NCBI RefSeq assembly: GCF_035083965.1
Contig: NC_089722.1
Coordinates: 37,061,958-37,125,957 of the forward strand
Source of the DNA: Branchiostoma lanceolatum
Lineage: Eukaryota; Chordata; Leptocardii; Amphioxiformes; Branchiostomatidae
Reading direction: 5' to 3'
DNA: 64,000 bases
Under the pieces are notes generated by a model, which was not told the DNA's origin, did not search any database, and saw only the letters and a list, made by a program, of their open reading frames with translations. Below, piece after piece: positions 8,401-64,000 of this stretch. Numbering within the stretch: the first letter of the stretch is position 1; each line of letters starts with the position of its first letter. The position numbers and the translations under genes were made by a program.

Positions 8401-9087
8401 TTAATTGTCTTTTTTCTCCTTTTTCTTCATTGAATTAACTACATGTTGTGATTTGGAACAGGACTCAGCGGTGTTGAGACTCTTGTCATCAGGATTGCGA
8501 CTATTCTCAGCAGTGTTACAACTGTTATCAGAAGTAGTTTGACTGTTCTCAGCAGTGTTACAACTGTTATCAGGAGTAGTGTGGTTGTTCTCAGCAGTGT
8601 TACAACTGTTATCAGAAGTAGTTTGACTGTTCTCAGCAGTGTTACAACTGTTATCAGGAGTAGTGTGGTTGTTCTCAGCAGTGTTACAGCTGTTATCAGA
8701 CGTGGTGAGACTGTTCTCAGCAGTGTTACAACTGTTATCAGACGTAGTGAGACTGTTCTCAGCAGTGTTACAACTGTTATCAGACGTAGTGAGACTGTTC
8801 TCAGCAGTGTTACAACTGTTATCAGAAGTAGTTTGACTGTTCTCAGCAGTGTTACAACTGTTATCAGAAGTAGTTTGACTGTTCTCAGCAGTGTTACAAC
8901 TGTTATCAGGAGTAGTGTGGTTGTTCTCAGCAGTGTTACAGCTGTTATCAGGAGTAGTGTGGTTGTTCTCAGCAGTGTTACAACTGTTATCAGGAGTAGT
9001 GTGGTTGTTCTCAGCATGCAGTGTAACAACTTTTCTGCGGAAGCTTATGTTTTTTTTCTGATGTTTTTTTTGTACGTCCACGTGCAT
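8401..9087 (-). CDS. Hypothetical repetitive protein from a 42-bp minisatellite
   Basis: A 228-codon minus-strand frame begins with a basic segment (MHVDVQKKHQKKNIS), contains about 12 repeats of 14 residues (type DNSCNTAENSQTTS or DNSCNTAENNHTTP) and ends in a Lys-rich tail (MKKKEKKDN). Each repeat has one Cys and is rich in Asn, Thr and Ser. No signal peptide or known domain was seen. The repeat period is a multiple of three, so open frames also arise in other phases on both strands. Openness is therefore weak evidence for a real gene. I chose this frame because it alone has non-repetitive, charged ends. It may be part of the neighbouring mobile-element debris. Low confidence that it is expressed. 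Confidence 0.3.
   Translation of the reverse strand: MHVDVQKKHQKKNISFRRKVVTLHAENNHTTPDNSCNTAENNHTTPDNSCNTAENNHTTPDNSCNTAENSQTTSDNSCNTAENSQTTSDNSCNTAENSLTTSDNSCNTAENSLTTSDNSCNTAENSLTTSDNSCNTAENNHTTPDNSCNTAENSQTTSDNSCNTAENNHTTPDNSCNTAENSQTTSDNSCNTAENSRNPDDKSLNTAESCSKSQHVVNSMKKKEKKDN
8500..9015. repeat. 42-bp minisatellite, about 12 units
   Basis: Unit of the type GTTACAACTGTTATCAGAAG then TAGTTTGACTGTTCTCAGCA then GT. At least three subtypes differ at the middle (AAGTAGTTTGACT, GGAGTAGTGTGGTT, GACGTAGTGAGACT), and these subtypes occur in blocks, as expected from unequal exchange. Very low divergence between units of a subtype suggests recent expansion. Confidence 0.95.
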
Positions 9088-18739: not shown

Positions 18740-20255
18740 TAAGAAGTGGTCGAGGGTGCGACAAAGAAGGGTCATTCTCTGCTAGTTGATAATCTTGGAT
18801 ACAAGTTCGATGTTCAACGTCACCTGCCCAGCGCCGTGCACTGGTTCTGCACTGTGCGTCCCAAAGTCGACCCATGCAAAGCCACAGTGAAGGATCGTGA
18901 TGGTGTGTTTGTGGCAGGCCCCAAGCAACATAACCACGCGCCCGACGTCAGCGCCGCGATATCTGCCAAAATTGCGGCTCGGGTGAAGAAAGAGGCGACA
19001 GGTGACTTATTCAAGGCAGCAGCCATAGTAGACGACGTCCTGCTGGAGAAACTTGGCGATGCGCCCTGTCCGTCGCTGAGAAAGTCGGTCCATTTGGCGA
19101 GAGCAGCCAATCGTCATAGAAAGAAGCTGAGACCAGAAGAGCCGAAAAACCTGGACTTTATCATCGACGAGGATTAAGAAACTCCGAGAGCTAAGGGAGC
19201 TCGCAAGATGCAAGGACACGTGGAAGAAGATGAAGAAAGACTGAATGCAGCTGCAGGACGTTTCAACGACTGCAGATGCAGAAACCAGTGGATGATGATG
19301 ATGAGGATTACGTGCCACCAACATTACTCAGAGGGGATGTCCGCGTCAGAGTCGGTGGCACTAAACGCCAACATCTGATCTTTGCCGCCGACACTCAACT
19401 GATCCACTTGAGCAAGGAAAAGACGTGGTATATGGACAGTACGTTCAAACTGAACCGGGCACCCTTCACGCAACTGCACAGTATCAGCGCATTCGTCAAG
19501 AAGGATGATTGTATGAAGAGCGTTCCCCTGGGTTTCGTTCTGATGTCGAGGCGTGAGATAAGGGACTACAAGAAAGTGATTAAGAAAATTATTGAACTGC
19601 TACTGGAGCCGCCAAAGGTGACACGCGCCATGATGGACTACGAAAAGGCCATGTGGTCGGCGATGTCGCAAGTGCTGCCTGACGTCACAAAGACCGGCTG
19701 CATGTTTCACTGGGCCCAATGCGTATGGAGGAAGATCCAGGACGCTGGGCTGCAGACAGCTTATCCACAGAAAGCTGCAGTCCACAAGTATCTGAAGAAG
19801 ATAATGTCGCTGCCATTCCTGCCCGCAGAAGATCTAGAGATTCCCGCCGAATGGGAGAGGATGAGGGCACACCTGCACTGCTGATCGTGACTGACTACGT
19901 CGACAGCACATGGGTCAACCCCTCGGCCTTACATCCATCCAGCAAAGGAGTTTGTTCAAGAAGACGGTGAGGACCAACAACGATGTAAAAGAACGCTCTT
20001 AAAAAGAGGGCGAACAGGTAGAGCAAGCTGCCCTTCTACCTGCTCGTGCCTCAGCTACAGAAAGAAGCGGCACAGGTTGCACTCAACGTCAAGCTTGTCA
20101 GGATGAGGAAACTCTTGCGCACTCGACACAAAGAGAGCAGAATCGCCCGAGAAGATATTCATGGAGTGGGTGAGGTACGAGAACGTAGAGAGGACGGCCA
20201 GCGAACTCCTGTGCGCGTGCACGCCATCTCGGCGGGGACCCTGACAATTGAATAA
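18740..20255 (+). pseudogene. FLYWCH-MULE transposase, near full length but frameshifted (copy 2)
   Basis: Seen: a FLYWCH finger (VVEGATKKGHSLLVDNLGYK, HWFCTVRPKVDPCKA, KQHNHAPD; about 18746-18930) and a linker (to 19177). After a frameshift comes a MULE catalytic region (19276-19884) with WYMDSTFK (first Asp, about 19435), MMDYEKA (second Asp, about 19635) and GCMFHWAQCVWRKIQ (the Cys-x2-His signature). The C-terminal tail continues in another frame (20046-20255, FYLLVPQLQKEA). Known: animal MULE transposases carry D, D, a CxxH helix and E. The final Glu region falls in the broken stretch 19884-20046. At least three frame breaks make it inactive. It shares the FLYWCH and linker arrangement with the minus-strand copy at 7100-8214. 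Confidence 0.85.
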
Positions 20256-41319: not shown

Positions 41320-42705
41320 ACCGGCTCAGAAAACTTGTGACTGTTTAAGTGGCATTGGTGCATCGTCATTCCAGTGCACAAGAAAGGTAGCAAGATGGAC
41401 CCCGCTAACTACTGGGCCATATCGCTGCTTTCTATCTCAGGTAAGTTTTTTTTTCCAGAATACTCCTGGACAGAATGAAGGATAGAACAGAAACCCACTT
41501 TAATGAATCCCAATTTGGTTTTAGAAGTGGGAGAGGCACAGTAGATGCCATATTTGTTGTAAGACAAATCCTAGAGAAAGCTAGGGAGAGGGGCAACTTA
41601 CACTTCCACTTCATTCACTTTAAGGCTGCTTTTGATACCATTTGGAGAAAGGCATTGTGGAAAATGATGAGGGCAATAGGAGTAGATGGTAAAATTGTAA
41701 ACATAGTAGAAGGGTTGTACAAAGCACCCAGTGTGCAATTACAATTAACCGTCAAATTACAAATTGGTTCCAAGTTGGTGTGGGGGGTCAGACAGGGGTG
41801 CCGCCTTATGTTCGCAGTTCTCTTCAATATTTTCCTGGAGATTGCAATGGATGAGCTGAAAAGTCTTGATCCGACCTTTCAGCTTCATGACAACTTATCC
41901 ACAGAAGAAAGGTGTGAAGATGACACCGCACTTATTGCAGCAACATTCAGAAAACTGCAGCTCTCAACACATGAGCTAGAAGCTGCATGCCAAAAGTTGG
42001 GTCTGGTGAATGCTGCAAAGGGTAAAGTTATCTCCAGTGAAACAGAAGAAAACATTAGCAAAGGGGTATAGTAGTAGAGAAGGTCCCAGAATTTGTTTTC
42101 CCTGGAGTGTTGCACTACAAATGACATCAAGCGAAGGTTATCACTTGCTGTCTCAGCATTTGGTCGACCAGGAAAAACACTTTGGAACCGCAAGGACAAC
42201 AGGAGATGCCCGAAAGTGTGCCTCTTTCAGGCACTTATACTCCCTAAGACACGTATGCTTGTGAAACTTGGACCTTAAAACGTCAGATGATCTTCTCCTT
42301 TTAGCCTTTGAAAGTAGATGCCTACGGCTACGGGCAATTCTCTGCATCACGCTCCGTGATCGCATACCAAATGTTGAAATCAGAGCCAAACTCGGGGCGA
42401 AAAAGACCATCGTGGAAATTATACAGACAAGAAAGCTGAGGTGGTTTGGACATGTTATAAGAAGACCCCAACAAAAATTAGTTTACAAAGCCTACATCCA
42501 GGAGTTATCTACCCCCAGACCCTGGGAAAGACCACACAAGAGATGGAAAGACCTTTCAGATCGTGAGGGACACTGGGTTAAACATTCGGGAGGAAGAGGC
42601 TAGGGCAAGGGAACGGAGGCTTCTTGGAGGATTCACCTGGAAAGCAAGGGGCCGGTTTCTGGCCTGTGCACGTAGGCAGGCACGCATTGCCAGTGGAACT
42701 TGAAT
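41320..42705 (+). pseudogene. Non-LTR reverse transcriptase (RTE-like), catalytically dead
   Basis: Seen: the RT N-terminal side in broken frames (41340-41470). The main open part (41475-42071) has QFGFRSGRGTVDAIFVVRQI, motif A FIHFKAAFDTIW in which the catalytic Asp is His, GVRQGCRLM, and motif C CEDDTALI. The post-RT segments follow in shifted frames (42093-42278 IKRRLSLAVSAFGRPGKTLW; 42268-42603 LRAILCITLRDRIPN, KLRWFGHVIRRP) to about 42705. Known: these phrases characterise a widespread invertebrate non-LTR family whose endonuclease-RT is often annotated as craniofacial development protein 2-like. The lost Asp and at least three shifts show it is dead. The endonuclease is missing (5' truncation). 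Confidence 0.8.
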
Positions 42706-49935: not shown

Positions 49936-51970
49936 GTGTCTAGTCATGGAAACAGAAACTCACATGGTCTTTTTTACGACAAAAAGACAGACAAGATGTA
50001 CAGTAAGCCATGTATAGAAGGAAAGAAGAAGAATGGTGCTTTCACGACGGGGACAAGAAACTTCCGGATCAAAAGTCGAGGCGGATGGACACGAAGCGGT
50101 TCTTCAGGCCCAGAACTAACGAGGAAACAATGTTCAGGTCGCTGTGCGACGCATCGTATGCTCTAGAACCAACACCGCCATAGCAGCAATGCGCAACGTG
50201 TATTAACTTGCCAAGGAACTCCTCCCAACAGATAAGTGCAAGACCCTAAGCAAGTTATGCATCCTGCAGGGATGCGAGACACTGGCTGGCCTAAGACTTT
50301 CTGACAACGCGGAATATTTGCATAACGACGTCGTCCTAGACATGCAGTCAGCCATGAATAACGTGTTGAAGGAGGACTTGATGGCCAAACTACAAAGGTC
50401 GCCTTACAAATAAATCATGACTGACGAGTCGACAGACATCTCCGTGGAGAAACTGTTGTGTACACATGTCAACCTTGTATATGATGGCAAACTAGAGAAA
50501 CGCTATTTATTTAACACGAAGATGTCCTCCTGTGACGCTGCTTCAGTTACGGAGGCGTTGAAAGGCCAGCTGGACAGCTATGGCATCGATCTGCAAGACG
50601 TCACTGGTTTCTGTAGTGATGGCGCTGCCGTGATGACAGGGAGGGAGAAAACGGCGTGGCGGTACGACTTAAAAGAGACAATCCAGCCATTTGCACAACT
50701 CACTGCGCTGCACACAAGCTAAATCTGAGTTCCCAGCAGTCTGCTGTGCCCATACCAGCCTTGCGTAAGTACCAGGGGACTGTCTATGGCTACTTCGCCA
50801 ACAGCAGCAGCCGTCAGGCCCGCCTAAAAGAAATGCACGCCATCCTGGACACTGATGATAAACTGAAGTCCATTCACAGTCCGTTGGCTTAACCTCAATG
50901 AAGCCAATGTTGCGATGTATAGGACCCTTCGAGCAGTGATAGAAGTCTTGCAAAAGGACGCAGAACACGATGGCTAAAACACTCGCAAAGTCCCTCATGT
51001 CGAACGACTTCATCTGCATCAATCATCTCCTCTGCGATGTCCTGGGCAGCATCGCGAGTCTCAGCAAGGCGTTCCTAGAGCGGCACTCTCACCTTCGCCA
51101 CAATCCATGTATGTAATCATCATGAATATTTAGCTGTGTTTTTTTTTGCTTGCTGAAAACAAAACTTCATTGTAAATTAGCTTTTATCTTCTTCCATTCT
51201 CGGGATACTATTTGTGCGGCGTGTGCATCTATGTAATTATTGTAACAAGTTGTTTTGTATTACTGATCGAGTGTGTGGGAGGGCAACTTACCGTGAGGAA
51301 TTTGACACAAAAACACCGAGCATCGTATGATCCCGTACGTAAATTATACACACATTTGTTTTATTGTTATTACATAGTTCATTTTATTTCCTAACGAAGC
51401 ATTTTCTCTTATTCTCTAGCCTACCGTCAAATCTACAATGGATACGATACGGGCCATGTAAGGTGAAGATGGAGGTGGGCACCAAATTCCAAGAGTTCAG
51501 GAACAGTCTCGTCGTAAACAACGGGAACACATGCTTCAAAGGGGAGAAAATCAAGAGCACGAGAGATGCGACTAGCCGTGGATGGTGTGAGGCAACACCT
51601 CGTGGACAACCTGATCAACAACATGAATGACAGGTTTCCCGCCATCGAGCTGTTCAAGGCCTCCAGGATCCTTGATCCTAAGTCCCTTCCTGAAGACAAC
51701 AAGGCGCGGGCCCGTTTCGGTCAGGAAGAGCTACAGTCCATCCTGGAACACATGGCACCCGCGGAGCGGGAAACAGTCATCAACTCAAGAATGCAGCATG
51801 AAGTGGCCAACATTTCAAGAACTCGTACATGCAAACTACAAGACCTCCTCCGTCCAGAACTTGGTGAATGCTATGACGGTATGACCACACACCGGTACCA
51901 TGCTGGCTACCTGCCCGAAACCACCAAACTAATGAGGTTGTCGATTTGGTTGTCCTGCCCGCCTAAATCC
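49936..51970 (+). pseudogene. hAT transposase (KIAA1586/ZNF862-like type), frameshifted
   Basis: Seen: MYSKPCIEGKKKNGAF (49998, a Cys-containing N-terminal finger remnant), then CETLAGLRLSDNAEYLHNDV. Next is IMTDESTDISVEKLLCTHVN (50417 on, first Asp motif), then GFCSDGAAVMTGRE (second Asp, about 50610-50645). A frameshift near 50655 leads to AICTTHCAAHKLNLSSQQSA (50656-50892), then LAKSLMSNDFICINHLLCDV, and LVDNLINNMNDRFPAIELFK with FKASRILDPKSLP (51566-51973). Known: DESTD, the CSDGA motif and the CxxHxLxL motif are hAT landmarks, and this subtype is often annotated as E3 SUMO-protein ligase KIAA1586-like. The C-terminal dimerisation block is missing here. An intron-like gap lies at about 51115-51420. 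Confidence 0.8.
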
Positions 51971-52135
51971 TGACTCTGTAAAACGACAGAGGAAACCAAT
52001 GACGACCAACTAATACAAGGCAATCCACAAACGTGCTACGCTGGGTGGAGACTAGTCGTGGCTTGCCACTGCACTCGGCAAAACCTCAGGGGCTGCCACT
52101 TATCCCTCATATTGGGCAAATGTCACTAAGACCAA

Positions 52136-56340: not shown

Positions 56341-57130
56341 TGAAAAAAGTAAATCTGCAATGCTATGTTGGGTAACAAGTTAAAAAGAGAGGTTCTTATT
56401 TTTGCGTTGCACCCCTAGCTGCAGTATTAGAAGATAATGCCTCCACTCCTGTCATGGAACGCGTGACATATTATGTTGAACTCAAACGCCAGTGTCACCT
56501 TCCTCGGAAAATGTCCACTTCTGAATGCAGAAGAGACACGGAATAATTTGCACCTGACCAGGTTGCACTAGAAGATAATAGCGCGGCATCTGAACCAGCG
56601 AAGCAAGTGCAGGAGAAGGACAACGCTGATGGACTGCCAGCCCATAAAGATAACACAACAAACAGGCCAGTTGGAAACAGTATTCAAACTGGTAGATTTT
56701 CTGTTGTTTAAAAGTGAGTGGTCATACTTTATCAATAGCACCCGTTGCATATACATATAGGTATCATATTGAGTGATTACAGTTCGATAAACTGTGGGGC
56801 AGAATCAAATGAAGGTCAATAACATTTTATGTTACTGGTTGTATCATTTTAAGGAGAAAACACACGAGATGTAATCCAGTCTACCAATTTCCATGGAAAG
56901 AGAAATGAGAACCGGAACCGAAGTCCAATATTGTCAACTTTTGAGACATGCTGCTGCATCTATGTGTATTTTCATGAACAAATATGAATTTTATTGCATC
57001 GTGTAAGCTTCATACAAAATAAAACACCTCAACTTTAACCTTGCAATATAGTTAAATTTAGATACATTGAATGATACATTTAATACCTATCATACAGAAA
57101 TGAGCATGAGTAGTATAGTCTAAGTCGGAG
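56341..57130. other. Noncoding
   Basis: No coding signal, no repeats. It separates element debris from the tandem-repeat region. Confidence 0.5.
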
Positions 57131-57167
57131 AGGTCACATAATCTGGGCGGCTCCGGGCGGTTCCTTT

Positions 57168-57376
57168 GGCGCCGCCCTTATTAGCATAATATATGTATGA
57201 TTGACAGGTCGTATAAGGAATGGCGCCGCCCTTATTAGCATAATATATGTATGATTGACAGGTCGTATAAGGAATGGCACCGCCCTTCTTAGCATAATTT
57301 ATGTATGATTGACAGGTCGTATAAGGAATGACACCGCCCTTATTAGCATAATATATGTATGATTGACAGGTCGTAT
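57168..57376. repeat. Four tandem 54-bp units with TGATTGACAG motif
   Basis: The unit reads GCGCCGCCCTTATTAGCATA then ATATATGTATGATTGACAGG then TCGTATAAGGAATG. Copies start near 57168, 57222, 57276 and 57330. TGATTGACAG occurs exactly in each (57198, 57252, 57306, 57360). Known: TGATTGACAG is the composite PBX-MEIS/PREP recognition sequence. Changes are few (GCGCC to GCACC or ACACC). Whether these bind anything is inference. They lie 4 kb upstream of the TATA promoter. Confidence 0.9.
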
Positions 57377-57380
57377 ATAA

Positions 57381-57560
57381 TGAAGGTATACCACGTTTTT
57401 GATATCTATTGTTATACCTATATTATATATCTATCCCATACTACTTAGGTTTATGATATATCATAACCTATTTTGTCGTATATATGAGGTATACCTAGGT
57501 TTGTGATATGCCGTAGCCTTTTTCTTGTCTTTGTCTATGATATGCCATAGGCTTATCGAG
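57381..57560. repeat. ATACC/GATAT-rich quasi-palindromes
   Basis: GGTTTATGATATATCATAACC (57450-57470) is a palindrome but for one extra T. Related GTTTGTGATATGCCGTAGCC and CTATGATATGCCATAG follow, each a degraded version. The region is AT-rich and appears to be built from repeats of a TATGATAT core. Confidence 0.6.
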
Positions 57561-57688
57561 GATGTCTATCCTATATGCAGTATGTAGTGATCAGAGATCG
57601 GGAGGAAAGGATTATGTACTAAGGAACTTATTTGATCGGATAGGTATCATGCGTAAACATGTAACATTTGGAGTAGATGGACGTGTTG

Positions 57689-57726
57689 CTCCGGAGTAGA
57701 ATATTGCTCCGGAGTATGCTCCGGAG
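57689..57726. promoter_or_regulatory. Three CTCCGGAG palindromes
   Basis: CTCCGGAG occurs at 57689-57696, 57707-57714 and 57719-57726, each preceded by G. The 8-bp sequence is self-complementary. Clustered identical palindromes suggest protein binding sites, but I know no factor with exactly this site. Possible chance expansion. Confidence 0.45.
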
Positions 57727-57979
57727 AAGATGATGGAATGCATTTTGTGGTCAGTCACGCATATTCACTTAATCATTTTGTTGCTTTAACAGATACAGTG
57801 AAGGCATGTGTTTGGAACAAAGGGATTCGCCAGCATTTCAATTCATTACGAACTGGCTCAATTCAGAAGCGTATAATGCAAATGAGCGGTCTGGACGTAG
57901 ATAGGCGGAGTTTTATTGACTCTCGGCTAGGTGTCAATTACTATGCTAATCCCCATAGCACACACAGCCAGCCCTGAGC

Positions 57980-60330
57980 TAGAATTCCCATTATGTTCAA
58001 CAAATCTCCATATAAGTCGAATTCAGACTATTTAAGTCTTTCCCAACAGGGCTCATTAAAGCCAGTACTATGAGCTAACGTTAATCCTACCGTTATGTTT
58101 GAAACACACGTCCGCTAATTGTGGTATTCAGACTCCCTATAGGTTGAGTTTCTTCAACAGGGTTCACTGAATCCAATCCTTAGCTAGACCTAGCTACCGT
58201 TATGTTTGAAACACACGTCCGCTATATATAAATTGCGATATTCAATCCCCCTATAAGTTGAGTTTCCCCAACAGGGTTCACTGAATCCAATCCTGAGCTA
58301 GACCTAGCTACCGTTATGTTTGAAACACACGTCCGCTATATATAAATTGTGGTATTCAGTCTCCCTATAAGTTGAGTTTCCCCAACAGGGTTCACTGAAT
58401 CCAATCCTGAGCTAGACCTAGCTACCGTTATGTTTGAAAAACACGTCCGCTATACATAAATTGTGGTATTCAGTCTCCCTATAAGTTGAGTTTCCTCAAC
58501 AGGGTTCACTGAATCCAATCCTGAGCTAGACCTAGCTACCATTATGTTTGAAACACACGTCCGCTATACATAAATTGTAGTATTCAGTCTCCCTATAAGT
58601 TGAGTTTCCCCAACAGGGTTCACTGAATCCAATCCTGAGCTAGACCTGGCTACCGTTATGTTTGAAAAACACGTCCGCTATTTGTGGTATTCAGTCTCCC
58701 TATAAGTTGAGTTTCCCCAACAGGGTTCACTGAATCCAATCCTGAGCTAGACCTAGCTACCGTTATGTTTGAAACACACGTCCGCTATATATAAATTGTG
58801 GTATTCAGTCTCCCTATAAGTTGAGTTTCCCCAACAGGGTTCACTGAATCCAATCCTGAGCTAGACCTAGCTACCATTATGTTTGAAACACACGTCCGCT
58901 ATATATAAATTGTGGCATTCAGTCTCCCTATAAGTTGAGTTTTCTCAACAGGGTTCACTGAATCCAATCCTGAGCTAGACCTAGCTACCGTTATGTTTGA
59001 AACACACATCCGCTATTTGTTATTTCAGTCTCCCTATAAGTTGAGTTTCCCCAACAGGGTTCACTGAATCCAATCCTGAGCTAGACCTAGCTACCATTAT
59101 GTTTGAAACACACGTCCGCTATATATAAATTGTGGTATTCAGTCTCCCTATAAGTTGAGTTTCCCCAACAGGGTTCACTGAATCCAATCCTGAGCTAGAC
59201 CTAGCTACCGTTATGTTTGAAACACACGTCCGCTATATATAAATTGTGGTATTCAGTCTCCCTATAAGTTGAGTTTCTCCAACAGGGTTCACTGAATCCA
59301 ATCCTGAGCTAGACCTAGCTACCATTATGTTTGAAACACACGTCCGCTATATATAAATTGCGGTATTCAGTCTCCCTATAAGTTGAGTTTCCCCAACAGG
59401 GTTCACTGAATCCAATCCTGAGCTAGACCTAGCTACCGTTATGTTTGAAACACACATCCGCTATTTGTGGTATTCAGTCTCCCTATAAGTTGAGTTTCCC
59501 CAACAGGGTTCACTGAATCCAATCCTGAGCTAGACCTAGCTACCATTATGTTTGAAACACACATCCGCTATATATAAATTGTGGTATTCAGTCTCCCTAT
59601 AAGTTGAGTTTCCCCAACAGGGTTCACTGAATCCAATCCTGAGCTAGACCTAGCTACCGTTATGTTTGAAACACACGTCCGCTATATATAAATTGTGGTA
59701 TTCAGTCTCCCTATAAGTTGAGTTTCCTCAACAGGGTTCACTGAATCCAATCCTGAGCTAGACCTAGCTACCATTATGTTTGAAACACACGTCCGCTATA
59801 TATAAATTGTGGTATTCAGTCTCCCTATAAGTTGAGTTTCCCCAACAGGGTTCACTGAATCCAATCCTGAGCTAGACCTAGCTACCGTTATGTTTGAAAC
59901 ACACGTCCGCTATTTGTCGTATTCAGTCTCCCTATAAGTTGAGTTTCCCCAACAGAGTTCACTGAATCCAATCCTGAGCTAGACCTAGCTACCGTTATGT
60001 TTGAAACACACGTCCGCTATATATAAATTGTGGTATTCAGTCTCCCTATAAGTTGAGTTTCCCCAACAGGGTTCACTGAATCCAATCCTGAGCTAGACCT
60101 AGCTACCGTTATGTTTGAAACACACGTCCGCTATATATAAATTGTGATATTCAGTCTCCTTATAAGTTGAGTTTCCTCTACAGGGTTCACTGAATCCAAT
60201 CCTAAGCTAGACTTACCGTTATGTTTGAAACACACGTCCGCTATTTGTGGTATTCAGTCTCCCTATAAGTTGAGTTTCCCCAACAGGCTGGGGTTCACTG
60301 AATCCAATCCTGAGCTAGACCTAGCTAGAA
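57980..60330. repeat. Satellite of about 20 units, 114 bp and about 103 bp variants
   Basis: The core AACAGGGTTCACTGAATCCA followed by ATCCTGAGCTAGACCTAGCT, ACCGTTATGTTTGAAACACA and CGTCCGC recurs from about 58045 to 60320. Most units include CTATATATAAATTG before the GGTATTCAGTCTCCCTATAA segment and are 114 bp. Several lack it and are about 103 bp. AGCTAG-AC-CTAGCT is an inverted pair. The first unit is diverged and the last is interrupted, as usual for array edges. Internal similarity is very high. Confidence 0.95.
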
Positions 60331-60947
60331 CTTTGCCAACACAAATGCCATGGTTGACGTTGATTCCTGCCATGGGGCTAGAACGATCCGAGTGTGTGGC
60401 CAACACCGCTTCCCACGCTAAAGTGACCAGTCCGAGACAGATGGCCCGTGATATCTACGTCACAGGAAAGGACGTCACAGGAAAGGAGAGCGCTGATTGG
60501 CTTCACTATTGAAAGGAAATTCCGTCACCAAACTGTGAAGGAAGACCATTGTTTAGCTCTCTAATTAATGCATGTGAATACAGGAGACCGCTTTACTAAT
60601 CTTCAAGCATCCACTGTTCCCAAATCAGCCAGCTAGAGAAGCTCCAGTCAGCCAGAGAAGCTCCGGGATTGTAGCGCACTTCGTAATAATAAATTCAAGG
60701 ATACAAGGCATTGGTATCTGGTGTCTTTGGTCTAGAGTCAAGCTACCACGCGGTTATTTGCTAGCGCCAAGGTGCCAATAGCACTCCGCACAGCGGGGGA
60801 GCCGCAGAAACTGCGGTTTTCCATAATACGCTTCTGAATTGGCTCAGTTCGTAATGTATGGAAAGTGCGTAAGCCACACAGACAGATGATTGATGATTAT
60901 TTGGCTCCTTGATCCGCGCCCCATTGTTACAGATAATGAACGCGTGT
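60331..60947. other. Spacer between satellite and promoter-proximal repeats
   Basis: Contains the 15-bp duplication and a CAGCCAGAGAAGCTCC-type phrase repeated at about 60627 and 60646. No gene supported. Confidence 0.45.
60457..60486. repeat. Perfect 15-bp tandem duplication with ACGTCA
   Basis: ACGTCACAGGAAAGG occurs twice back to back (60457-60471 and 60472-60486). ACGTCA is the CRE/AP-1-family half-site core. About 900 bp upstream of the TATA box. Confidence 0.9.
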
Positions 60948-61380
60948 GTTGGGAACTCCCTTGAGCCTCTTTGAGGCACCGTTTGTTTGCGGTTTCCATG
61001 CATGCACGTGCAGTTCAAAGTGGTCAAGCCACTATTGTTTGGAACTCCCTTGAGCCCCTTTGAGGCACCGTTCGTTTCTGTTCCCATGGATGTTCTAAAT
61101 TTAGACGCATGCACGTGCGATTTAAGGGAACGCTGGGTGGTCAAATCCCTATTGTTGGGAACTCCCTTGAGCCCCTTTGAGGCACCGCTTATTTCTGTTC
61201 CCATGGATGTTTTTAATTGATACGCGCGCACGTGCGGTTTTAAGGGAAACCCCTGTGGTCAAGCCCCTATTGTTGGGAACTCCCTCGAGAGCTATTTTGA
61301 CAGCGCTGTTTGTTTCTGTTCCCACGGATGCGCCTTTTTATGCTCCAAACCGTGTGCACGTGCACGGGCACCTGTGTGAA
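60948..61380. promoter_or_regulatory. Four diverged 107-128-bp units with kB-like and E-box motifs
   Basis: Units begin GGGAACTCCC (60951-60960, 61157-61166, 61275-61284; the second unit has TGGAACTCCC at 61040-61049), continue TTGAGCCCCTTTGAGGCACC and TTTCTGTTCCCATGGATG, and contain CACGTG at 61005-61010, 61112-61117, 61229-61234 and 61357-61362. GGGAACTCCC fits the general NF-kB pattern GGGRNNYYCC. CACGTG is a canonical E-box. The array ends about 45 bp before the TATA box, so a role as upstream control modules of the following gene is a reasonable inference. It could equally be a simple tandem repeat. Confidence 0.65.
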
Positions 61381-61407
61381 ACCGCTGACACCTTGGGGCC
61401 TGAGTCA

Positions 61408-61414
61408 TATAAAA
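61408..61414 (+). promoter_or_regulatory. TATA box of the zinc-finger/OTU-like gene
   Basis: TATAAAA sits in CATATAAAAGGCC, a strong Pol II TATA context. Transcription would start about 30 bp downstream, near 61440 (GAAGACACTTGGCCAGCGCA). A GT donor follows about 90 bp later. Confidence 0.7.
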
Positions 61415-61439
61415 GGCCGACAGCCTGAGGCGAGAAGAC

Positions 61440-61527
61440 ACTTGGCCAGCGCAGCGAGCTGTGGAACTGCATCTCTCCCTGGTCTCCTCATCGTCCGTCA
61501 GCTCAGCACGTCACAGTCGTCAAACTG
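61440..61527 (+). other. Probable 5' UTR exon and following intron
   Basis: The exon ends at CAAACTG before a GTAAGT donor (61528-61533). The intron would run to a T-rich tract and TTTCAG acceptor ending at 62617, about 1.1 kb. The coding start at 62639 is 22 bp into the next exon. Start and splice positions are predicted, not proven. Confidence 0.6.
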
Positions 61528-62638
61528 GTAAGTCTGCCTTCATCTTTTTTATTTATTTTATTTTTTCGTCTTTTGTCCTTCAATGTATATGTAGGCCGAG
61601 CTATAACTCCTGGTGAGACTATACACACTAATGTGTTTATCGTCTGTATGATGATCAGATATCTGGATGTTTTTTGATAAGAGATAGACCAAACCTTTAT
61701 TCGCAAACTACCATGACCGCCAAAAACGAAAAATAAGTCAGGTTTGGTATGTACAAGGGGGTTTGTATGTAGAAACATCATTGTCTTGTTCTCTTTTCCA
61801 ACATATCTTTGTCAAAAAAATTGTGATGTATTGGAGAACGATTTCATGTCCGACTGTTGAGCATGTCGCGTTACGTTGGTTTCTGACGCGTTGTTGTCCC
61901 ACGAGAGAACAGCGTTATGCAGTTATTTTCCCTTTTGACCCGAAGCCTTTTGTTCGACCGAACGAAAGAATGCAGAGGGTGAAAATGGTTCTTCTTTTTG
62001 TTGTTTCTGTTCTCAAAGTTGAAAGTAGTAGGAAAACGCACAGTTCATTCATGTGTTTCGAGTTAAGTATTGTCATACACTTAGTTATCGTGTGTCTTGT
62101 ACAGTGTGTACGCGTGTTGTACAGTTGCGGTGCGCGTTCCCTATAGCTAGTAAACGTTGGCATTTATTCGGGATCCCGTGTGTTGGGAATTGGGTTTTGT
62201 ACAGGGGAAAGTATCTCTCCCGCTGTTCTGTATTGAACAACAAGTTTGCATATTCTAGTGACGGTTTCACCACATGAAAAAGGTCTAGCAATTTGTTTTC
62301 TGTTTCTTTGTGGTTTTATTCATTGATGAATAACTCAAATCGGTCTAATGAAAGTTGATAGATAAAGAGGCTGGGGTGCAACAAGGTTGAAGCCCTTACC
62401 ACAAGATGTCCGGTCATCCTGGTCCGTCGTGACATTGTAGGACCTTGTAGGGGTCCGTTGTAGCTTTGTCGTGGTTCGTCTGTCAATGACTTTCTTGTTG
62501 ATGTTTTGCAAACACCAGCTAATTTGGTTTAGACTGTCCTGTCGCAGTATATTTTTGCCCGTAGTTTGTCGGCTTTTTTTTTGGTTTGTTTTCAAAGTCG
62601 TTCGTTCTGTGTTTCAGAGCAAAGTCGTCAGTACAACC

Positions 62639-64000
62639 ATGACGTTCCAATGCGGACAGTGTGGAAAAGAGTTCAAACATAGACAGTCCTTTAGCCGTCA
62701 CAAGAAAGTGGCACATACCGCATCACCCAACCACCGCTGCGAGGCATGTGACCAGACATTTACCCGTGTACACGACTTAAAACGACACCAGCAGCAGAAG
62801 CATACGTCTATCGCGCCTCAGCACGTATGTGATTTCTGCGGGAAAAACTTCGCAAGGGCGGACAACCTGCGAGAACACAAGCGTACAAACGACAAACCTC
62901 CGACGAGCCTTATATTCCGCTGCCGTCTGTGTAATACTGAGTTTAACACGGTAGGAAAACTGAAGCGGCACGAGGAAGAGACACACCACGAAGACACACC
63001 GTCCACCTCCCGGGGTCGCAAAAGACACCATTCTAGCAACGTCGACGATGCTGTGCCGAATCGTAGAAAGGTTCAGCCCACGCCACCAGCTGACTTGTTT
63101 CCCCTGCAGGAAGATACCTGGGACAAACCCGAGGACTCGGCTTTAGAAGTTGACGATCCGGCCTTAGAAAAAATGTATAGAGAAAAATGGTCGAAAATTC
63201 GTACACATTTCGAGAGAAAACTGGTCCATGACAGATATAATTTTAGATTAAACTCCCTCAACGTGGACGACCTGACGGACAAAGTACGTGCGATCTTCCG
63301 AAACCAAAAGGAGGCGTTCAAGATCAACCTGTCGTACGGGTTCGTCCTCCGTAGCAACGAAGGCGAACTTCGATATTTCTACCCCTGCGAGAACAACAAC
63401 CGCTTCCTGGAGAAACCGATGATAGTCAACAACGAAGAAGACCTGCAAACATTCCTGGACAAAATAGCCGACAAGGACGTACTGGAGTATTGTCGACAAC
63501 AGCGTCCGGACTCTAAATGGATCGTCCACGCCATTCCCCAAGTAGAGTTCTACGTCAGCAAGCTGGGGAAGAACCATCCCATCGGTGCGCCCAGGAATCT
63601 TCCCACCTACCTTCTCAACAACAAAGCCATCGTCACCCTTCAAAGTGGCGCACACGGACCCTTCGACGACAACCTATGCATCTTCCGCTGTCTTGCAGCA
63701 CACTACGGTAAGGATCGGAAACAACTCGAGACGTCTACTAAGGAGTTCTTCCTACAGTATCTGGAAGCCGTGGGCGTGGCCGAGAAAGATTTCTCCGGGG
63801 TGTCTCTAGACGACTTGTCTGTCATAGAGAATCTCTTTCAAGTCAATGTCTACGTGTACACCCTTCAGAAAGGCGACGAAGAAGATGAAGAAAACCAAAC
63901 ATCGTTTGCTGAACTGGTCAGGCGACCCCTCACCCGTCATGAAAACACGATGTACCTGAACCTATACGAGGATCACTTCAGCTACATTAGAGAGTTTGCG
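62639..64000 (+). CDS. C2H2 zinc-finger and OTU-protease-like protein, N-terminal part (partial)
   Basis: 454 codons are open from ATG at 62639 to the window end with no stop. Seen: four C2H2 units (residues 5-26, 34-55, 64-84, 95-116). The third has Asn in place of the last His. A basic, Ser-rich linker (about 118-165) follows, then a region of unknown fold (about 165-330). Then GPFDDNLCIFRCLAAH, where D343 or D344 and C347 match the Asp-x-x-Cys core of OTU cysteine proteases, with H446 in DHFSYIREF a candidate catalytic His. Known: large invertebrate proteins with fingers and an OTU-like segment continue into further zinc motifs and a family-B DNA polymerase typical of self-replicating mobile elements. 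Inferred: this is such an N-terminal half. The polymerase lies beyond the window, so it is untested. The start is preceded by a UTR exon with a TATA promoter. Confidence 0.7.
   Translation, partial: MTFQCGQCGKEFKHRQSFSRHKKVAHTASPNHRCEACDQTFTRVHDLKRHQQQKHTSIAPQHVCDFCGKNFARADNLREHKRTNDKPPTSLIFRCRLCNTEFNTVGKLKRHEEETHHEDTPSTSRGRKRHHSSNVDDAVPNRRKVQPTPPADLFPLQEDTWDKPEDSALEVDDPALEKMYREKWSKIRTHFERKLVHDRYNFRLNSLNVDDLTDKVRAIFRNQKEAFKINLSYGFVLRSNEGELRYFYPCENNNRFLEKPMIVNNEEDLQTFLDKIADKDVLEYCRQQRPDSKWIVHAIPQVEFYVSKLGKNHPIGAPRNLPTYLLNNKAIVTLQSGAHGPFDDNLCIFRCLAAHYGKDRKQLETSTKEFFLQYLEAVGVAEKDFSGVSLDDLSVIENLFQVNVYVYTLQKGDEEDEENQTSFAELVRRPLTRHENTMYLNLYEDHFSYIREFA

What the first reader, a model, noticed from the sequence alone, without database searches (positions are those of the whole stretch)
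61408..64000. Intact large frame with complete promoter architecture amid dead elements
It is the only long coding region without visible damage. TATA box, 5' UTR exon, GTAAGT donor, T-rich acceptor and a 454-codon frame follow in correct order. The product combines C2H2 fingers with an OTU-like Cys-protease core. If it continues into a family-B polymerase it would be a giant self-replicating element with a dedicated promoter. If not, it is a new host protein.
Basis: partly seen in the sequence, partly recalled or inferred. Interest (0 to 1): 0.75.

Follow-up and report, generated by a model that had tools for sequence, protein, structure and literature searches.

The report
Front end of polinton polymerase gene
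The window ends inside an apparently intact gene whose closest relatives, found in lancelets, belong to the DNA-copying protein of polinton-type mobile elements, with its own built-in primer and a protein-cutting domain; it is a well-preserved member of a known family rather than a new host protein.

The parts
60942..61400 (+). Degenerate ~117-base tandem repeats upstream of the TATA box, cut by me into four units; CACGTG at 61005, 61112, 61229 and 61357, one per unit (the fourth out of register in the alignment)
   Evidence: (61020-61289, 2.3 copies); CACGTG 4 in 61000-61439 against a shuffle mean of 0.11, 0 of 5000 shuffles reach 4; tandem duplication explains part of this
61401..61407 (+). 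TGAGTCA, AP-1-like motif (name recalled) touching the TATA box
   Evidence: TGA[GC]TCA occurs 8 times in the window, so a motif match only
61408..61415 (+). TATA box TATAAAAG
61440..61527 (+).
   Evidence: no transcript data
61528..62617 (+). Proposed 5' UTR intron, GTAAGT to CAG, with 22 ATGs
   Evidence: consensus only
62639..64000 (+). Open reading frame, 454 codons, cut by the window end: N-terminal part of a polinton-type protein-primed PolB
62645..62986 (+). Four C2H2 fingers (residues 3-116); finger 3 has Asn84 (62888-62890) in place of the last His
63218..63574 (+). Terminal-protein-like domain (residues 194-312), little-finger/PAD fold
63512..63514 (+). Ser292, proposed nucleotide-linking residue, in RPDSKW between the second long helical stretch and the last strand of the TP domain
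   Evidence: S 145, T 5 of 150 rows; S 19, T 2 of 21 thinned rows
63596..64000 (+). OTU-like cysteine protease domain (residues 320-454)
63668..63679 (+). D344-N-L-C347, OTU active-site motif
   Evidence: D 160 of 164, C 163 of 164 rows; thinned set D 18, C 20 of 21
63974..63976 (+). His446, OTU catalytic His
   Evidence: H 174 of 175 rows; thinned set H 18, gap 3 of 21

Best explanation
[quoted passage not shown] The whole protein would be about 1,450-1,500 residues (arithmetic estimate): C2H2 fingers, terminal-protein (TP) domain, OTU protease, a further finger, exonuclease, palm with a Vsr-like insert. Proposed working: the fingers hold the protein on element DNA (inferred); the polymerase attaches the first nucleotide to the TP domain, most likely on Ser292 (inferred), and copies the linear DNA from its end; the OTU domain then cuts the TP free so that the polymerase can elongate (published hypothesis for this architecture, not shown here). 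Shown here: open frame, fingers, fold matches, conserved residues, and polymerase and Vsr-like continuation in relatives.
Confidence: 0.88

Rival explanations
1. A polymerase-only replicator: the element keeps the TP-OTU-PolB gene and its promoter but has no capsid genes, spreading like a linear plasmid or solo transposon.
For: No structural gene recognised among 20 other frames tested; no relative in three scans of viral contigs. PMC11071308 describes related elements that lost the capsid module.
Against: Downstream sequence, where such genes could lie, is unseen, and not every listed frame was tested; relatives carry the Vsr-like insert that marks group I Mavericks.
Confidence: 0.25
2. A domesticated host gene made from a polinton polymerase, kept for a cellular function, with a host-type promoter and 5' UTR intron.
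For: TATA box, CACGTG repeats and splice signals in order; open frame; 1 of 28 conserved columns deviates, and P0004 shares that change.
Against: Several members in B. belcheri alone (P0002, P0004, P0013, P0162) and many clusters in the database look like an element; no one-to-one orthologue was shown.
Confidence: 0.1
3. An element copy already broken beyond the window.
For: Finger 3 has lost its last zinc-binding His; transposase and reverse-transcriptase fragments lie elsewhere in the window, about 43 and 21 kb upstream; amphioxus gene models of the family are often split.
Against: No stop or frameshift in 1,362 bases, and S292, D344, C347 and H446 are kept.
Confidence: 0.35

Closest known systems
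Group I Polinton/Maverick protein-primed PolB (PMC11071308; VSR insert in PMC10328495)
   Same: TP domain then vOTU in the window, then PolB in relatives; OTU Cys and His kept; Ser in the linking position; Vsr-like insert between Pol motifs A and B in relatives
   Different: Several C2H2 fingers before the TP domain ('zinc finger' absent from the main text of PMC11071308); rest of the element unseen
Drosophila-associated adintovirus 2 C2H2-type protein and MELD virus DNA polymerase B (BFVD)
   Same: Best two viral fold matches, the first named for C2H2 domains
   Different: 15-16% identity and loose superposition; no capsid or integrase gene among the 20 window frames tested
Densovirus/parvovirid-labelled polymerase and structural proteins and bidnavirid PolB (PMC11071308)
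   Same: Fold matches at E 3.8e-7 to 1.6e-5
   Different: PMC11071308 reports replaced OTU active-site residues in bidnavirids; here they are kept
Ginger1 and Helitron OTU proteins (PMC2836005, passages seen)
   Same: OTU protease in a mobile-element protein
   Different: There the OTU accompanies a DDE transposase or Helitron protein; here relatives continue into PolB

Membership tests
Polinton/Maverick-type pPolB | vOTU domain with catalytic Cys and His | tested here: met
Polinton/Maverick-type pPolB | N-terminal TP domain with little-finger/PAD fold | tested here: met
Polinton/Maverick-type pPolB | Ser or Tyr linking residue between helix 2 and strand 4 near Gly or Pro | tested here: met
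   S292 beside P290, model helices 106-127 and strand 135-149; S 145, T 5 of 150 rows. Position only; linkage not shown
Polinton/Maverick-type pPolB | PolB exonuclease and palm motifs in the same protein | not testable with these tools
   Beyond base 64000; present in relatives and visible in amphioxus P0162, P0154, P0157
Group I Maverick | About 140-residue VSR-like insertion | not testable with these tools
   Beyond the window; TIGR00632 vsr matches P0162 (3.6e-5) and P0157 (9.8e-7), P0154 at 0.071, P0148 and P0244 not
Polinton/Maverick element | Integrase, packaging ATPase, capsid proteins | tested here: inconclusive
   None among 20 other window frames; not all frames tested; downstream side unseen
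Polinton/Maverick element | Terminal inverted repeats and target-site duplication | not testable with these tools
   The other end is outside the window; the 4 inverted repeats of 16 bases or more in 56500-64000 do not bracket the coding frame
Adintovirus | Adintovirus PolB together with capsid and integrase genes | not testable with these tools
   Only a PolB-type fold match; the paper of Starrett et al. is not held

The most novel reading that the evidence does not exclude
The C2H2 array is a sequence-reading module fused to the protein primer, steering replication to the element's own ends, and the gene is switched on by a host-style promoter (repeated CACGTG sites, TGAGTCA, TATA, 5' UTR intron), so that a chordate polinton couples its replication to host signals.
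Probability: 0.2. Interest if true: 0.55.

Novelty: new member of a known kind. Interest (0 to 1): 0.33.

Why it matters
It places a well-preserved TP-OTU part of a polinton polymerase gene, with fingers in front and a plausible promoter, in what is probably an amphioxus genome. It offers a nearly invariant candidate priming residue (S292) and an intact protease site, so the published hypothesis that OTU releases the primer can be tested on an animal protein. It does not add a new kind of system.

Tried and rejected
New host protein: not favoured, since the family is multicopy and longer relatives bear a polymerase. OTU of Ginger or Helitron type: set aside because relatives continue into PolB. 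More copies in the window: tblastn of seven family proteins at E 0.01 found only this locus. Rfam at gathering thresholds: no match. Viral contigs: three scans, no relative. Phage records: no match to P0162. PDB sequences: profile of the Vsr-like insert, 0 matches at E 10; for P0001 the 60 of 176 rows shown are zinc-finger proteins. PMC11071308: abstract and sections 6-9 and 11 read; PMC10328495, PMC12721341 and PMC2836005: passages only; the rest seen as listings.

Limits of the counts: the family counts rest on the proteins listed to me (147 and 266, the window's own included) out of 1,741 and 1,197 found with 120 listed each; many are near-identical. Of 178 matching proteins 132 were near-full, and thinning kept 21, with 7 rows (the window's and six named relatives) forced in. 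N-terminal fingers by a simple pattern: 92 of 127 proteins that include the TP start have at least one, 35 none; some of these, such as P0004, look like models that start late. One OTU row, P0028, has Ser for the catalytic Cys. In the tree 8 of 18 inner forks are open and several rows have long branches.

Full report
What was claimed and what is there. The landmarks of the finding are in the sequence: TATAAAAG at 61408, an 88-base leader without ATG, GTAAGT at 61528, a T-rich stretch before an AG ending at 62617, ATG at 62639, and 454 codons open to the window end. The full stop-free run is 520 codons, against at most 253 in 200 shuffles. Amphioxus relatives P0002, P0003 and P0006 start at the same methionine. 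Transcription start and splicing remain predictions.

Where it leads. DNA_pol_B_2 was matched by 3 of 8 relatives (P0024 0.1 bit under the cut-off), 6 of 6 longer relatives, and 2 of 4 (P0162 and P0154 yes, P0157 and P0148 no). By patterns of my own for motifs recalled from the polymerase literature, of 147 proteins Exo I was found in 132, Exo II in 122, Exo III in 120, Pol A in 121, Pol B in 100 and Pol C in 9. In amphioxus, P0013 runs from OTU into the first exonuclease motif, and P0162, P0157 and P0166 begin at the end of OTU and run through the polymerase. P0002 and P0162 have the same listed contig length, 2,847,944, which suggests one scaffold and perhaps one split gene; adjacency was not shown. 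Relatives carry a Vsr-like insert between Pol motifs A and B: TIGR00632 at 8.4e-4 and Pfam Vsr at 0.045 for a fragment, 3.6e-5 for P0162, 9.8e-7 for P0157, 0.071 for P0154, none for P0148 and P0244 at E 1, none for whole P0062 at E 10. All are far below the family's cut-off, so this is a distant likeness. PMC10328495 (two passages) gives such an insertion as the mark of group I Mavericks.

Active sites. D344, C347 and H446 fit an OTU site (D 160 of 164, C 163 of 164, H 174 of 175 rows; thinned, D 18, C 20, H 18 of 21 with 3 gaps for H); D343 does not. Ser292 lies in RPDSKW, between the second helical stretch and the last strand of the TP domain, where PMC11071308 places the linking residue; it is Ser in 145 and Thr in 5 of 150 rows, Ser in 19 and Thr in 2 of 21 thinned rows. 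Catalytic geometry was not measured, since coordinates were not at hand.

Promoter. Four CACGTG sites lie in 61000-61439; none of 5000 shuffles reached four (mean 0.11). They sit in degenerate tandem repeats, so they are not four independent events. TGAGTCA ends at the base before the TATA box, but that motif occurs 8 times in the window. These are motif matches only.

Judgement. The gene is the N-terminal part of a polinton-type protein-primed polymerase gene, well preserved over 454 codons apart from a lost His in finger 3. Whether the whole element is intact, has capsid genes, or moves cannot be told from this window.

Noticed in passing
57836-57882 and 60818-60864: A 47-base inverted repeat (85% complementary) brackets the 20-copy, 114-base tandem array at 58087-60327, just upstream of the gene; it looks like a separate non-autonomous element. 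No target-site duplication was evident by eye.
   Followed up: partly
19234-19881: Fragment of a MULE transposase (Pfam E 1.2e-11).
   Followed up: no
41445-42068: Fragment of a reverse transcriptase (Pfam RVT_1 E 3.5e-15).
   Followed up: no
50414-51973: Frames that look to me like pieces of a hAT-type transposase (recalled resemblance; the two frames tested have no Pfam match at 0.01).
   Followed up: no
63950-64000: Gene models P0157, P0162, P0166 (Branchiostoma) and P0155 (Holothuria) start at the methionine equivalent to Met438, eight residues before His446, which would part the OTU Cys from its His; probably an annotation artefact.
   Followed up: partly
8499-9016: A 42-base tandem repeat, 12.3 copies, with three long frames open across it, two on the - strand and one on the + strand.
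   Followed up: no
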